Positions 8,741 through 50,721 of a stretch of DNA of 57,731 nt are shown here, piece by piece. Below the pieces are notes generated by a model that searched no databases, was not told where the DNA came from, and saw nothing but the letters and a program-made list of their open reading frames with translations. The position numbers and the translations under genes were made by a program. Position 1 is the first letter of the stretch, and every line of letters starts with the position of its first letter. Source of the DNA: Candidatus Doudnabacteria bacterium. Lineage in GTDB: Bacteria; Patescibacteriota; Dojkabacteria; J137; JAEUSD01. The stretch lies in the NCBI GenBank assembly GCA_016788825.1, contig JAEUSD010000005.1:1-57731 (forward strand), read 5' to 3'.

Positions 8741-11326
8741 ATGCGGATACATGTGGGAAAAGAAAAATTAGCTACTTGGGACAAGTTGACCCTCATGGTT
8801 GACTGGCAAGATTTCACCCACTACGAAGGAAATCTGACTAGCCAGATGCAACTGGAACGCTCCATGGGCTTATTTCTGAGGGGGCTAGCTATGGCGTTGG
8901 TGGCTTTCTTCTTTATTCTGGTGGTTCTGGGTGGTAATTGGGGACGGCTAAACCTATTTAGCCCTTCTACTGCAGTGGAGTTAATGCCTTGGTTGGGGAT
9001 AGCGGTTGGAATGTATAGCTTGTTTTTGGGGCGTGATCGCAATAGGTTTTCTTTTAATTCTGAGCCCAAGAGGTTACCTGATGTATTGTCCGCAGCTCAA
9101 AGTACGAAGGGGTCTGAGTATCTGGTGGAGATCGATGATTTGCTAGATATCCGAATGTTGCAATTATTTGATCATCTTTATCATCATCGGGGGGATACAT
9201 TTATGGAGGAGTTGGTGCGGTATTTGCTTAAGCCTGAAGTGTGTGGTCAGTTGTGGGAGCGGCTGGGAGTTGACGTGCGTACTCAAACGGAGAGGATTGT
9301 GACTTTGGTCAACTCCCAGCCGCTCAAGTTTGATGACAACTACACGTGGCTATTTCCTGCGCTTGTAGAGCAGGCAATGAATATTGAAGCTGAACGAGTA
9401 GATCACCGCGCTTTGTTTTTTGCCTTATTCATGGATCATTACACTCAGTTGATGTTGGATTTGAACGTGCAGGCTGCTGAGTTGCAAGCTTTGCGCGTGT
9501 GGGTGCGTAACCAACAGCGTAAGGTGAATTATTACAAGAAGTGGGAGTTAATGGCGGTGCTGAAACCAAAGGGGGTGGTGAATAGGTCCTACACTTCAAG
9601 GTATGCTGCCACTTTGGAAGAGTATGGGGAGGATTTGACAAGAAAGGCTGCGATGGGTGATTTCACAATTACAATTGGGCGTGAACAGGTTATGGTGGAT
9701 GTGTTCAAGGTGTTGCAAAAGGATCAGAACGCGGCGTGTATTTTGATCGGAGATCCTGGTGTGGGCAAGACTCAATTTTTGAAGCATATGGCGGTTAGGA
9801 TGGTGGTTGAAGATGTCCCGAGTGTTTTGCAGGATAAACGGCTGGTCTTGTTTAATTTCAATAAAGCCTTTACTGAGAATCAAACTTTGGAACAATTTAA
9901 GATAACTTTGGAAAATCTGATCACTGAGGTGGCAAAGGCAAGAAATGTGGTGATGGTGCTCGATGATATCGATCAATTGTTTAATGTGCGTGCCGATCTG
10001 CAGGCGGAGATTATTAACTTGTTGGTAAGTGGGGTGGGTAAGTACAATTTGAAAATGATCGCAACTGCGAGCTCGGATGGGTACCATCGGTTCATTAAGC
10101 CGATCCGTCCGTTGTCTGCTTTGTTCCAGGCGGTTACGATCGCTGAGCCAGAACCATTGATCTCTTTACAGATACTTATCGATGAGGCAGCTGCGCGCGA
10201 AGCGCGCAGCGGTGTCAAAGTACAGGTCGACGCTTTGAGGCAGATTGTATCGCTTGCTCCGCAGTACGCTTATGAGCGAGTGATGCCTGATAAGGCGATT
10301 GATTTGCTGGAAGAGGGGATATTGGAAGCAAAGGACAGGGGATTGCGTTTCTTGACTGCAGATGTGGTGAGCAGGGTTGTTTCACGCAAGGTTGGGGTAA
10401 GTGTGGGGGACATTACGAAGTCTGAGTCAGAAAAGCTTGTGAAACTTGAAGAGAATATGCACAAGAGAGTGGTGGGGCAAAATGTCGCGATCTCTGCTAT
10501 CGCTTCGGCTTTGCGCCGCTCTCGAGCTGGGTTGTCTTCTGGGAAGCGGCCAATCTCCTCTTTCCTTTTCTTTGGTCCGACGGGAGTGGGGAAGACGGAG
10601 GTGGCCAAGACTTTGGCTCAGACCTATTATGGGGATGAGAAAATGATGATTCGGATTGATATGTCCGAGTATCATGAAGAGCAGAATTTGCAGAGGTTGA
10701 TTGGTTACACTGAAGGTGCAAAATTTATCAATGGTTTCTTGACTCAAGCTGTGCGTGCTCGTCCATTTTCTTTGGTGTTGCTGGATGAGATTGAGAAAGC
10801 AAATCCTAAGGTTTTGGATTTGTTTCTGCAGGTGCTTGATGAGGGGCATTTGACTGATGGGGCGGGACAGAAGGTTGATTTTACAAATACGATTATCATT
10901 GCAACTTCGAATGCTGGGTCGCGAGAGATTGCGGAATTGATAGGGGAGGGGATGAAATATGATGCTGTGTATGAGCGGGTATTGCCGAACTTGCGTCAGG
11001 TATTTCGAGTAGAGTTCCTAAACAGGTTCGATAAGATTATAATGTTTAAACCTTTGCTTCCTGGGGAGGTGGCGGAGATTGCAGTGCGGGAGTTAGCTAA
11101 GTTAGGAGATAATTTGCTGGGTAAGGGAATTGCAATGGTGTATGGTCGCCAACTGCTGGAGGATCTTGTGAGGTTGGGCTATGACCCAGTCTATGGGGCT
11201 AGGCAAGTGAAGCGAGTGATTCAGGAGAAGGTTGAAGATGCGGTGGCTGAAAAAATCGTGCGGGGTGAGTTGCTGAGTGGAAAGACAATTAAGTTTAATT
11301 CTGTCCAAAACTATGAAGTTACCTAG
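8741..11326 (+). CDS. Membrane-anchored double-AAA+ Clp ATPase
   Basis: The 861-residue protein begins with two membrane helices (about 43-65 and 80-97) and a short Clp-N-like helical region. AAA-1 follows, with Walker A GDPGVGKTQ near 338 and Walker B VMVLDDID near 404. AAA-2 has Walker A FGPTGVGKTEVAK near 611, Walker B LVLLDEIEKANP near 678, sensor TIIIATSNAGS and a C-terminal D2-small domain (YDPVYGARQVKRVI). The linker between the AAA modules is short, so the long ClpB coiled-coil M-domain is absent. I also see no IGF/IGL loop for docking on ClpP. It is therefore probably a membrane-bound unfoldase or remodeller. It overlaps the next gene by 14 nt and heads the pilin-like cluster, which suggests it acts on that machine. 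An 18-bp inverted repeat lies inside at 9257-9325. Confidence 0.85.
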   Translation: MRIHVGKEKLATWDKLTLMVDWQDFTHYEGNLTSQMQLERSMGLFLRGLAMALVAFFFILVVLGGNWGRLNLFSPSTAVELMPWLGIAVGMYSLFLGRDRNRFSFNSEPKRLPDVLSAAQSTKGSEYLVEIDDLLDIRMLQLFDHLYHHRGDTFMEELVRYLLKPEVCGQLWERLGVDVRTQTERIVTLVNSQPLKFDDNYTWLFPALVEQAMNIEAERVDHRALFFALFMDHYTQLMLDLNVQAAELQALRVWVRNQQRKVNYYKKWELMAVLKPKGVVNRSYTSRYAATLEEYGEDLTRKAAMGDFTITIGREQVMVDVFKVLQKDQNAACILIGDPGVGKTQFLKHMAVRMVVEDVPSVLQDKRLVLFNFNKAFTENQTLEQFKITLENLITEVAKARNVVMVLDDIDQLFNVRADLQAEIINLLVSGVGKYNLKMIATASSDGYHRFIKPIRPLSALFQAVTIAEPEPLISLQILIDEAAAREARSGVKVQVDALRQIVSLAPQYAYERVMPDKAIDLLEEGILEAKDRGLRFLTADVVSRVVSRKVGVSVGDITKSESEKLVKLEENMHKRVVGQNVAISAIASALRRSRAGLSSGKRPISSFLFFGPTGVGKTEVAKTLAQTYYGDEKMMIRIDMSEYHEEQNLQRLIGYTEGAKFINGFLTQAVRARPFSLVLLDEIEKANPKVLDLFLQVLDEGHLTDGAGQKVDFTNTIIIATSNAGSREIAELIGEGMKYDAVYERVLPNLRQVFRVEFLNRFDKIIMFKPLLPGEVAEIAVRELAKLGDNLLGKGIAMVYGRQLLEDLVRLGYDPVYGARQVKRVIQEKVEDAVAEKIVRGELLSGKTIKFNSVQNYEVT
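9257..9325. repeat. Perfect 18-bp inverted repeat inside the Clp gene
   Basis: The arm at 9257-9274 (gagcggctgggagttgac) is exactly complementary to 9308-9325, with a 33-nt loop. Both arms lie in the reading frame. No T-run follows it. Confidence 0.9.
10190..10210. repeat. Perfect 9-bp GC hairpin inside the Clp gene
   Basis: gctgcgcgc (10190-10198), loop gaa, gcgcgcagc (10202-10210). It is another in-frame perfect hairpin with a GAA loop. Confidence 0.8.
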
Positions 11327-28764: not shown

Positions 28765-28823
28765 ATCGCCTGAAAAGATGTTTCAGATAGCCAGATATGT
28801 TATCATATAAGGCCTAAGTACTA

Positions 28824-28916
28824 GGCGGCTTGGTCGCGGGGTAGAGCAGAGGCAGCTCGTCAGGCTCATAACCTGAAGGTCGCACGTTCGAGTCGTGCCC
28901 CCGCAACCAAGCCGCC
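28824..28916. repeat. Perfect 11-bp inverted repeat enclosing the initiator tRNA
   Basis: GGCGGCTTGGT (28824-28834) ends exactly at the base before tRNA position 1. Its exact complement ACCAAGCCGCC (28906-28916) begins with A73-CCA of the tRNA. In a precursor RNA the acceptor stem would extend by 11 bp past the C1-A72 mismatch. A second small palindrome (GCCTA/TAGGC, 28812-28826) overlaps the left arm and could compete with it. Confidence 0.9.
28835..28909 (+). tRNA. Initiator tRNA-fMet (CAU), CCA encoded
   Basis: Acceptor CGCGGGG/CCCCGCA has the C1-A72 mismatch that marks bacterial initiators. The anticodon loop is CTCATAA on the stem TCAGG/CCTGA, and the T-arm is GCACG/CGTGC with TTCGAGT. 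A73 and CCA follow. The anticodon stem has A29-U41 in place of one of the three usual G-C pairs (29-31). Confidence 0.92.
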
Positions 28917-28947
28917 CGAGTCAGCAAATTTCTGCTACAGTTAAGTT

Positions 28948-50499: not shown

Positions 50500-50619
50500 A
50501 TCCTGGTGTCTGTAGCGACGCGGAACCACCTCTTCCCATTCCGAACAGAGAAGTGAAACGCATCAGCGCCGAAGATACTTGGACCGCAGGGTCCTGGGAA
50601 AATAGGTCGACGCTAGGAC
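50500..50619 (+). rRNA. rrf: 5S ribosomal RNA
   Basis: Helix I pairs tcctggtgtc (50501-50510) with gacgctagga (50609-50618), with two wobble pairs. Internal landmarks are ccattccgaacagagaagtgaaac and gcgccgaagatac. It is the last gene of the rRNA operon. Confidence 0.95.
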
Positions 50620-50721
50620 AAAGAGACCGAACAATATGTTCGGTTTTTTTGTGTCTTGCCGTCTCCCTTTGACTAGTTGAACTTGGAATCTATTTGATAT
50701 TGTCCTAGCGTCGACCTATTT
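50600..50721. repeat. 22-nt perfect inverted copy of the 5S 3' end
   Basis: aaatagg...gacaa at 50600-50621, covering the 5S 3' end, is repeated exactly in inverse orientation at 50700-50721. The second copy contains the stop codon of the Nudix gene. Confidence 0.95.
50627..50650 (+). terminator. Rho-independent terminator of the rRNA operon
   Basis: ccgaaca (50627-50633), loop ata, tgttcgg (50637-50643) and seven T residues. Confidence 0.92.

What the first reader, a model, noticed from the sequence alone, without database searches (positions are those of the whole stretch)
28824..28916. Initiator tRNA locked inside a perfect 11-bp inverted repeat that includes its CCA
The 11 nt before tRNA-fMet are an exact complement of A73-CCA plus the next 7 nt. 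In the precursor the acceptor stem would continue for 11 bp past the C1-A72 mismatch and sequester the CCA that RNase P normally reads. None of the other four tRNAs here has this. It may control maturation of the initiator tRNA, or serve as a hairpin substrate for another nuclease.
Basis: seen in the sequence. Interest (0 to 1): 0.66.

Follow-up and report, generated by a model that had tools for sequence, protein, structure and literature searches.

The report
Initiator tRNA precursor with extended stem
The start-codon tRNA gene in this small bacterial genome is flanked by perfectly matching sequences that would lengthen its end stem by 11 base pairs before trimming, and the same arrangement turns up now and then on many other tRNAs in related bacteria, so it is real and recurrent but not a special switch for the initiator.

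Summary
The inverted repeat is real: 28824-28834 pairs perfectly with 28906-28916, adding 11 bp beyond the C1-A72 mismatch of tRNA-fMet (chance about 4e-7 per gene). It is not initiator-specific. In the same genome tRNA-Asp has 9 bp and tRNA-Cys an interrupted 5+7 bp. In two congeneric genomes 6 of 39 and 4 of 31 tRNAs have 8 bp or more, against about 0.1% when leaders and trailers are swapped. Around fMet it is rare: 4 of 52 genomes fetched, 0 of 9 in the same order, and the three cases on the tree need three changes. For tRNA-Asp it is phylogenetically clustered, and helices shared by sister species are kept by two-sided changes. The genome's RNase P RNA lacks the CCA-reading GGU in its P15 loop, so 'sequestering the CCA that RNase P reads' is unlikely here. 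Best reading: a leader-trailer helix in the tRNA precursor, a longer form of the leader-RCCA pairing known from E. coli, probably created by local inverted copying and, where it persists, kept as a processing stem. No transcript data exist. Many such loci elsewhere also carry broken partial tRNA copies; this one does not.

The parts
28824..28834 (+). leader arm GGCGGCTTGGT, 5' half of the acceptor-stem extension
   Evidence: exact reverse complement of 28906-28916
28835..28909 (+). tRNA-fMet (CAT), C1-A72 mismatch, encoded CCA; the only initiator gene seen in this genome
   Evidence: ARAGORN and Rfam; own-genome tRNA list of 42
28906..28916 (+). trailer arm: A73-CCA plus AGCCGCC, 3' half of the extension
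   Evidence: occurs nowhere else exactly in the genome
28801..28806 (+). TATCAT, possible -10 box, 28 nt before the tRNA; implies a leader of about 22 nt (inferred)
   Evidence: 5 of 6 match; the sigma-70 two-hexamer scan found no promoter
28812..28826 (+). possible competing leader hairpin GCCTA-AGTAC-TAGGC, overlapping the outer 3 bp of the extension
   Evidence: leader folded alone: -6.5 kcal/mol; role is inference

Best explanation
The repeat is the leader-trailer helix of the tRNA-fMet precursor. The transcript starts about 22 nt upstream (inferred), and leader and trailer close an 11-bp stem that continues the acceptor stem past C1-A72. It is one case of a recurrent feature of this bacterial class: some tRNA genes carry a perfect or near-perfect 8-18 bp extension. 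It most likely arose in one step, by inverted copying of one flank during replication (template switching on the tRNA hairpin), and is then tolerated or kept as a processing stem: it holds both ends together, shields the 3' end, and must be opened or trimmed (by RNase III or another endonuclease) before RNase P and CCA repair finish the ends. Shown: the repeat, its recurrence, clustering and two-sided changes for some tRNAs, the RNase III gene, the missing GGU of RNase P RNA. Inferred: transcript ends, origin, order of cleavage. Not claimed: control of initiation.
For: Perfect 11 bp. Excess over swapped flanks: 8 bp or more in 2 of 42 (own), 6 of 39 (G031), 4 of 31 (G042) tRNAs against at most 0.14% expected. 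Two-state distribution: fMet, 4 of 52 genomes at 11-18 bp and 48 of 52 at 4 or fewer; Asp, 12 of 49 at 9-14 and 37 at 4 or fewer. Helices persisting between congeners (Asp in three genera, Asn in one): 51 positions, 40 identical, 3 kept with a one-sided change, 5 kept with two-sided changes, 3 broken; fMet of G027 and G052: 9 identical, 1 one-sided, 2 two-sided, 1 broken. Asp extension is clustered on an FtsH tree: 4 changes against 8.0 shuffled, 2 of 500 shuffles as low. Own extended tRNAs have their best -10 match 26, 28 and 32 nt upstream, others a median of 12.5. RNase III present; no GGU in P15. Turnover: G031 and G042 differ in the extension of Thr, Leu, Val-TAC and Gln. A second perfect inverted copy of an RNA end lies in this window at the 5S gene. 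Template switching as a maker of RNA hairpins is in print (PMC8794818, passages read).
Against: No transcript or enzyme data. No genome of the same genus or family was among the relatives searched, so conservation of the window's own helix cannot be tested. fMet extension needs 3 changes for 3 rows on the tree: no sign that it is kept for fMet. Some long-leader tRNAs of the same genome have no extension. In E. coli two leader-RCCA pairs already slow RNase P about 13-fold (PMC9433436), so 11 pairs should be a burden. Two-sided changes can themselves come from template switching (PMC8794818), so they do not prove selection. The covariation sets were chosen for pairing and are circular as evidence of selection.
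Confidence: 0.5

Rival explanations
1. Purely neutral: a template-switch accident that copied one flank as the complement of the other, without function, soon to be lost.
For: Scattered over tRNA types and species with unrelated sequences; gained or lost within one genus; three separate fMet changes on the tree; mechanism in print (PMC8794818); another perfect inverted RNA end in the window.
Against: Asp extension is clustered and spans deep branches and arms drift with pairing kept in congeners; a long helix over the RNase P site should be selected against if it were only a burden.
Confidence: 0.3
2. Control of initiator tRNA supply by hiding the CCA and cleavage site from RNase P.
For: Freeing -5 to -1 and ACCA would cost about 12 kcal/mol; an alternative leader hairpin exists; pairing of leader with RCCA slows E. 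coli RNase P (PMC9433436).
Against: Other tRNAs of the genome have it; 0 of 9 same-order fMet genes have it; RNase P RNA lacks the CCA-reading loop; the other three extended fMet genes encode no CCA.
Confidence: 0.06
3. The extended tRNA hairpin ends transcription (intrinsic terminator).
For: 7 of 9 same-order relatives have a terminator-like hairpin right after fMet (by eye), the window does not; in G052 seven T follow the helix directly.
Against: No T-tract follows the window helix, and the scan finds no terminator; only 7 of 42 extended genes are followed by at least 5 T in 8; own tRNA-Asp has a separate terminator-like hairpin downstream.
Confidence: 0.05
4. Footprint of a mobile element that inserts in tRNA genes (GIY-YIG nuclease or palindromic insert), the arms being its ends.
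For: Partial tRNA copies flank 18 of 28 extended genes against 42 of 191 others (Fisher 1e-5); a GIY-YIG frame runs into or ends just before 5 of 41 extended genes against 6 of 236 with under 4 bp; in G031 tRNA-Thr the extension came with such an insert.
Against: The window fMet, own Asp and the other three extended fMet genes have no partial copies; no GIY-YIG hit in the window; the arm is unique in the genome.
Confidence: 0.08

Closest known systems
E. coli pre-tRNAs with leader-RCCA pairing that extends the acceptor stem (PMC9433436, abstract and two results sections read; PMC10731613, passages read)
   Same: Leader nucleotides -1, -2 pair with A73 and C74 and lengthen the acceptor stem over the RNase P site; 18 of 87 E. 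coli precursors have G(-2)U(-1), as here.
   Different: There 2-3 pairs, met by an RNase P whose L15 binds RCCA; here 11 perfect pairs (8-18 in relatives) and an RNase P RNA without GGU.
rRNA leader-trailer helices cut by RNase III (PMC10250234 seen in the search listing only; the RNase III part is recalled)
   Same: 5' and 3' flanks of a stable RNA pair into a stem that holds the ends of the precursor together.
   Different: Much shorter, around a tRNA, not conserved for fMet, and RNase III cleavage is untested.
RNA hairpins made by template-switch mutations (PMC8794818, passages read)
   Same: Perfect inverted copy next to an existing hairpin, sudden gain, paired changes.
   Different: Described there for microRNA and rRNA in the passages read; direction and donor of the copy cannot be shown here for lack of close relatives.

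Membership tests
Pre-tRNA with extended acceptor stem (leader-RCCA pairing) | N-1 and N-2 of the leader pair with N73 and C74 | tested here: met
   T-1:A73, G-2:C74 and nine more pairs
Pre-tRNA with extended acceptor stem (leader-RCCA pairing) | pairing slows the organism's RNase P | not testable with these tools
   needs enzyme assay
Pre-tRNA with extended acceptor stem (leader-RCCA pairing) | RNase P RNA with GGU in L15 that binds RCCA, as in E. coli | tested here: not met
   P15 loop CCCG-TAAGA-CGGG; such loss in 23 of 35 CPR genomes is reported in PMC8172020. So: works like the E. coli pairing, but not the same enzyme-substrate system
RNase III-processed leader-trailer stem | long complementary flanks of a stable RNA | tested here: met
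   11 bp, continuous with the acceptor stem but for C1-A72
RNase III-processed leader-trailer stem | RNase III in the genome | tested here: met
   TIGR02191 261 bits at G000:C44
RNase III-processed leader-trailer stem | stem conserved among orthologous genes | tested here: not met
   for fMet 4 of 52 genomes; for Asp 12 of 49, clustered
RNase III-processed leader-trailer stem | cleavage in the stem | not testable with these tools
   no transcript ends available
Intrinsic terminator | U-tract after the stem | tested here: not met
   CGAGTCAGCAAA follows
tRNA-associated mobile element | partial tRNA copies or GIY-YIG gene beside the tRNA | tested here: not met
   none at the window fMet

The most novel reading that the evidence does not exclude
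In this branch of small-genome bacteria, whose RNase P RNA (as seen in this genome) has lost the CCA-reading loop, a subset of tRNAs is matured through an obligatory long leader-trailer stem: a double-strand nuclease cuts first, RNase P or the end-trimming enzymes second. The stems are seeded by template switching on the tRNA hairpin and then kept by compensating changes, so tRNA genes here gain rRNA-like processing stalks.
Probability: 0.25. Interest if true: 0.7.

Novelty: new variant of a known kind. Interest (0 to 1): 0.42.

Why it matters
RNase P studies treat two leader-RCCA pairs as an obstacle; these genomes carry 8-18 pairs on tRNAs that are often the only gene of their kind. Either their tRNA maturation works in another order or their RNase P tolerates far more than E. 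coli's. The set also gives natural before-and-after cases for how perfect RNA stems arise, since congeneric genomes differ in having them.

Tried and rejected
Rejected as main readings: initiator-only device (Asp, Cys and many other tRNAs have it); dispersed repeat (arm unique); terminator (7 of 42); mobile-element footprint for this gene. A search for close relatives in genome contigs with the neighbouring recombinase frame found none; a second with the 814-aa ATPase frame gave 6 distant loci, 29-36% identity, five titled Candidatus Gracilibacteria (one of them 'uncultured') and one Candidatus Altimarinus, so the organism is placed only loosely, and 'Patescibacteria/CPR' is my inference. An E. 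coli whole-genome control could not be run; the control is swapped leaders and trailers within each genome, plus relatives lacking the feature.

Limits of counts. One search recognised 45 of 52 fMet genes by an anticodon-arm string; the seven dropped (G010, G017, G028, G033, G043, G046, G047) have 0-4 bp. Asp was scored in 49 of 50 genomes fetched, out of 78 with a match. In the class search (85 genomes) fMet genes not fetched are judged by bit score only: four at 112-116 bits, the rest at 91 or less. Loci found with models R1 and R2 are selected for pairing, so the 42 of 317 is not a frequency. In one search one of the 42 non-extended genes with a copy is from the E. coli metZWV cluster, and some 12-base matches are chance; the 40 loci had only about 150 nt of flank, so GIY-YIG is undercounted.

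No paper was found on long leader-trailer helices of tRNAs in these bacteria or on such tRNA-nested inserts (61, 75); the library holds only openly licensed PMC papers.

Full report
What is there. tRNA-fMet lies at 28835-28909 in a 57.7-kb contig of a 1.09-Mb genome in 56 contigs. The 11 bases before it are the exact reverse complement of A73-CCA and the next seven. In a precursor the stem would run on for 11 bp past C1-A72; the fold of 28800-28940 shows this as minimum-energy and centroid structure, the helix is worth about 25 kcal/mol, and freeing -5 to -1 plus ACCA costs about 12. Chance is about 3.5e-7 per gene. The arm is found nowhere else exactly in the genome.

Not an initiator feature. 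Of the 42 tRNA genes of the genome, fMet has 11 bp, Asp-GTC 9 (8 Watson-Crick), Cys-GCA 5 bp and after a 2-nt bulge 7 more by eye; the other 39 have 2 or fewer. In two genomes of one genus of the same class, 6 of 39 (G031) and 4 of 31 (G042) tRNAs have 8 bp or more; leaders paired with trailers of other tRNAs in the same genome reach 8 bp in 0.12%, 0.14% and 0% of combinations in the three genomes. A covariance model trained on extended fMet genes also picked out extended Pro and Asn tRNAs elsewhere in the phylum, and a second model found Asn, Asp, Thr, Val, Pro, Arg, Gly, Ile, Ala and others in the class. These were selected for pairing and show spread, not frequency.

Around fMet it is rare. 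52 of 57 genomes, own included, matched; of their 52 genes 4 have 11-18 bp (own, G035, G052, G027) and 48 have 4 or fewer. In the nine same-order relatives it is 0-1 bp; seven of them have a terminator-like hairpin straight after the CCA, G006 one about 16 nt on, G002 one further on (by eye). In all 85 genomes of the class the same four stand out by score. On an FtsH tree of 30 genomes the three fMet cases present need three changes.

Signs of upkeep. For tRNA-Asp 12 of 49 genomes have 9-14 bp and 37 have 4 or fewer. The state is clustered: 4 changes against 8.0 in shuffles, 2 of 500 as low (23 of the 30 rows scored). In congeneric pairs where the helix persists (Asp G031/G042, G004/G009, G018/G024; Asn G031/G042) 51 positions give 40 identical pairs, 3 kept with a one-sided change, 5 kept with two-sided changes, 3 broken. 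In G004 and G009 a nuclease frame overlaps the leader, and the two-sided change lies there. fMet of G027 and G052 (one family) give 9 identical, 1 one-sided, 2 two-sided, 1 broken. Against upkeep: between G031 and G042 the extension of Thr, Leu-GAG, Val-TAC and Gln-TTG is present in only one or much longer in one.

Enzymes. The genome's RNase P RNA is class A, 154.7 bits; its P15 loop reads CCCG-TAAGA-CGGG, without the GGU that binds CCA in E. coli. Loss of this motif in 23 of 35 such genomes is reported in PMC8172020 (passages read). Only 6 of 42 tRNAs encode CCA. RNase III is present. In E. coli leader-RCCA pairing of two pairs slows RNase P about 13-fold in kcat/Km, and 18 of 87 precursors have G(-2)U(-1) (PMC9433436, sections read). 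An 11-bp helix would be a far stronger obstacle, so prior cutting or unwinding is likely, but this is inference.

Origin. Sudden, perfect, patchy and mostly sequence-unrelated extensions fit inverted copying by template switching, described for RNA genes in PMC8794818 (passages read). In tRNA-Thr of G031 against G042 one change of the locus can be read by eye: the old promoter and 5' piece lie upstream, palindromic inserts and a complete tRNA with 10-bp extension follow, and a 3' piece with the old trailer lies downstream. Such partial copies flank 18 of 28 extended and 42 of 191 other genes. The window fMet has none, so this route is not shown for it.

Verdict. A confirmed, non-random leader-trailer helix of a tRNA precursor; a longer variant of a known pairing, recurrent in this class, not initiator-specific. 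Origin by inverted copying and a role as processing stem are the best guess at 0.5; neutrality is the main rival at 0.3.

Noticed in passing
window 50600-50621 and 50700-50721: The 3' end of the 5S rRNA gene has a perfect 22-nt inverted copy 78 nt downstream, with a terminator-like hairpin and T-run between.
   Followed up: partly
L144, L145, L148, L150, L153, L185, L189, L211, L217, L221, L222 and others: Many tRNA genes in related genomes lie between a broken 5' tRNA piece upstream and broken 3' pieces downstream, or have one of the two, often with palindromic inserts (some TCCCG...CGGGA) in the D-loop, anticodon arm or T-loop of the broken copy; in L144 a unit of about 71 nt of 3' end, trailer and hairpin is repeated in tandem.
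   Followed up: partly
L185, L189, L201, L204 (tRNA-Asp), also L162: A GIY-YIG nuclease frame of about 85 aa runs into the tRNA; its last codons form the leader and its stop is a UAG inside the tRNA (positions 8-10 in L201, the D-loop GGTTAG in L185 and L204).
   Followed up: partly
own genome: L056 (tRNA-Gly-TCC) and L037 (tRNA-Arg-TCT): The window's own genome has two tRNAs with a 5' tRNA fragment and a promoter-like box upstream; the Gly insert holds a stretch complementary to the fragment, and the Arg insert holds the 3' part of a GIY-YIG frame.
   Followed up: no
own genome, tRNA genes: Many tRNAs have their best -10 match only 6-13 nt before the gene (18 of 30 scored non-extended genes), so their leaders would be nearly absent; the extended ones have 26-32 nt.
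   Followed up: partly
window 9257-9274 and 9308-9325: Perfect 18-nt inverted repeat with a 33-nt spacer, not examined.
   Followed up: no
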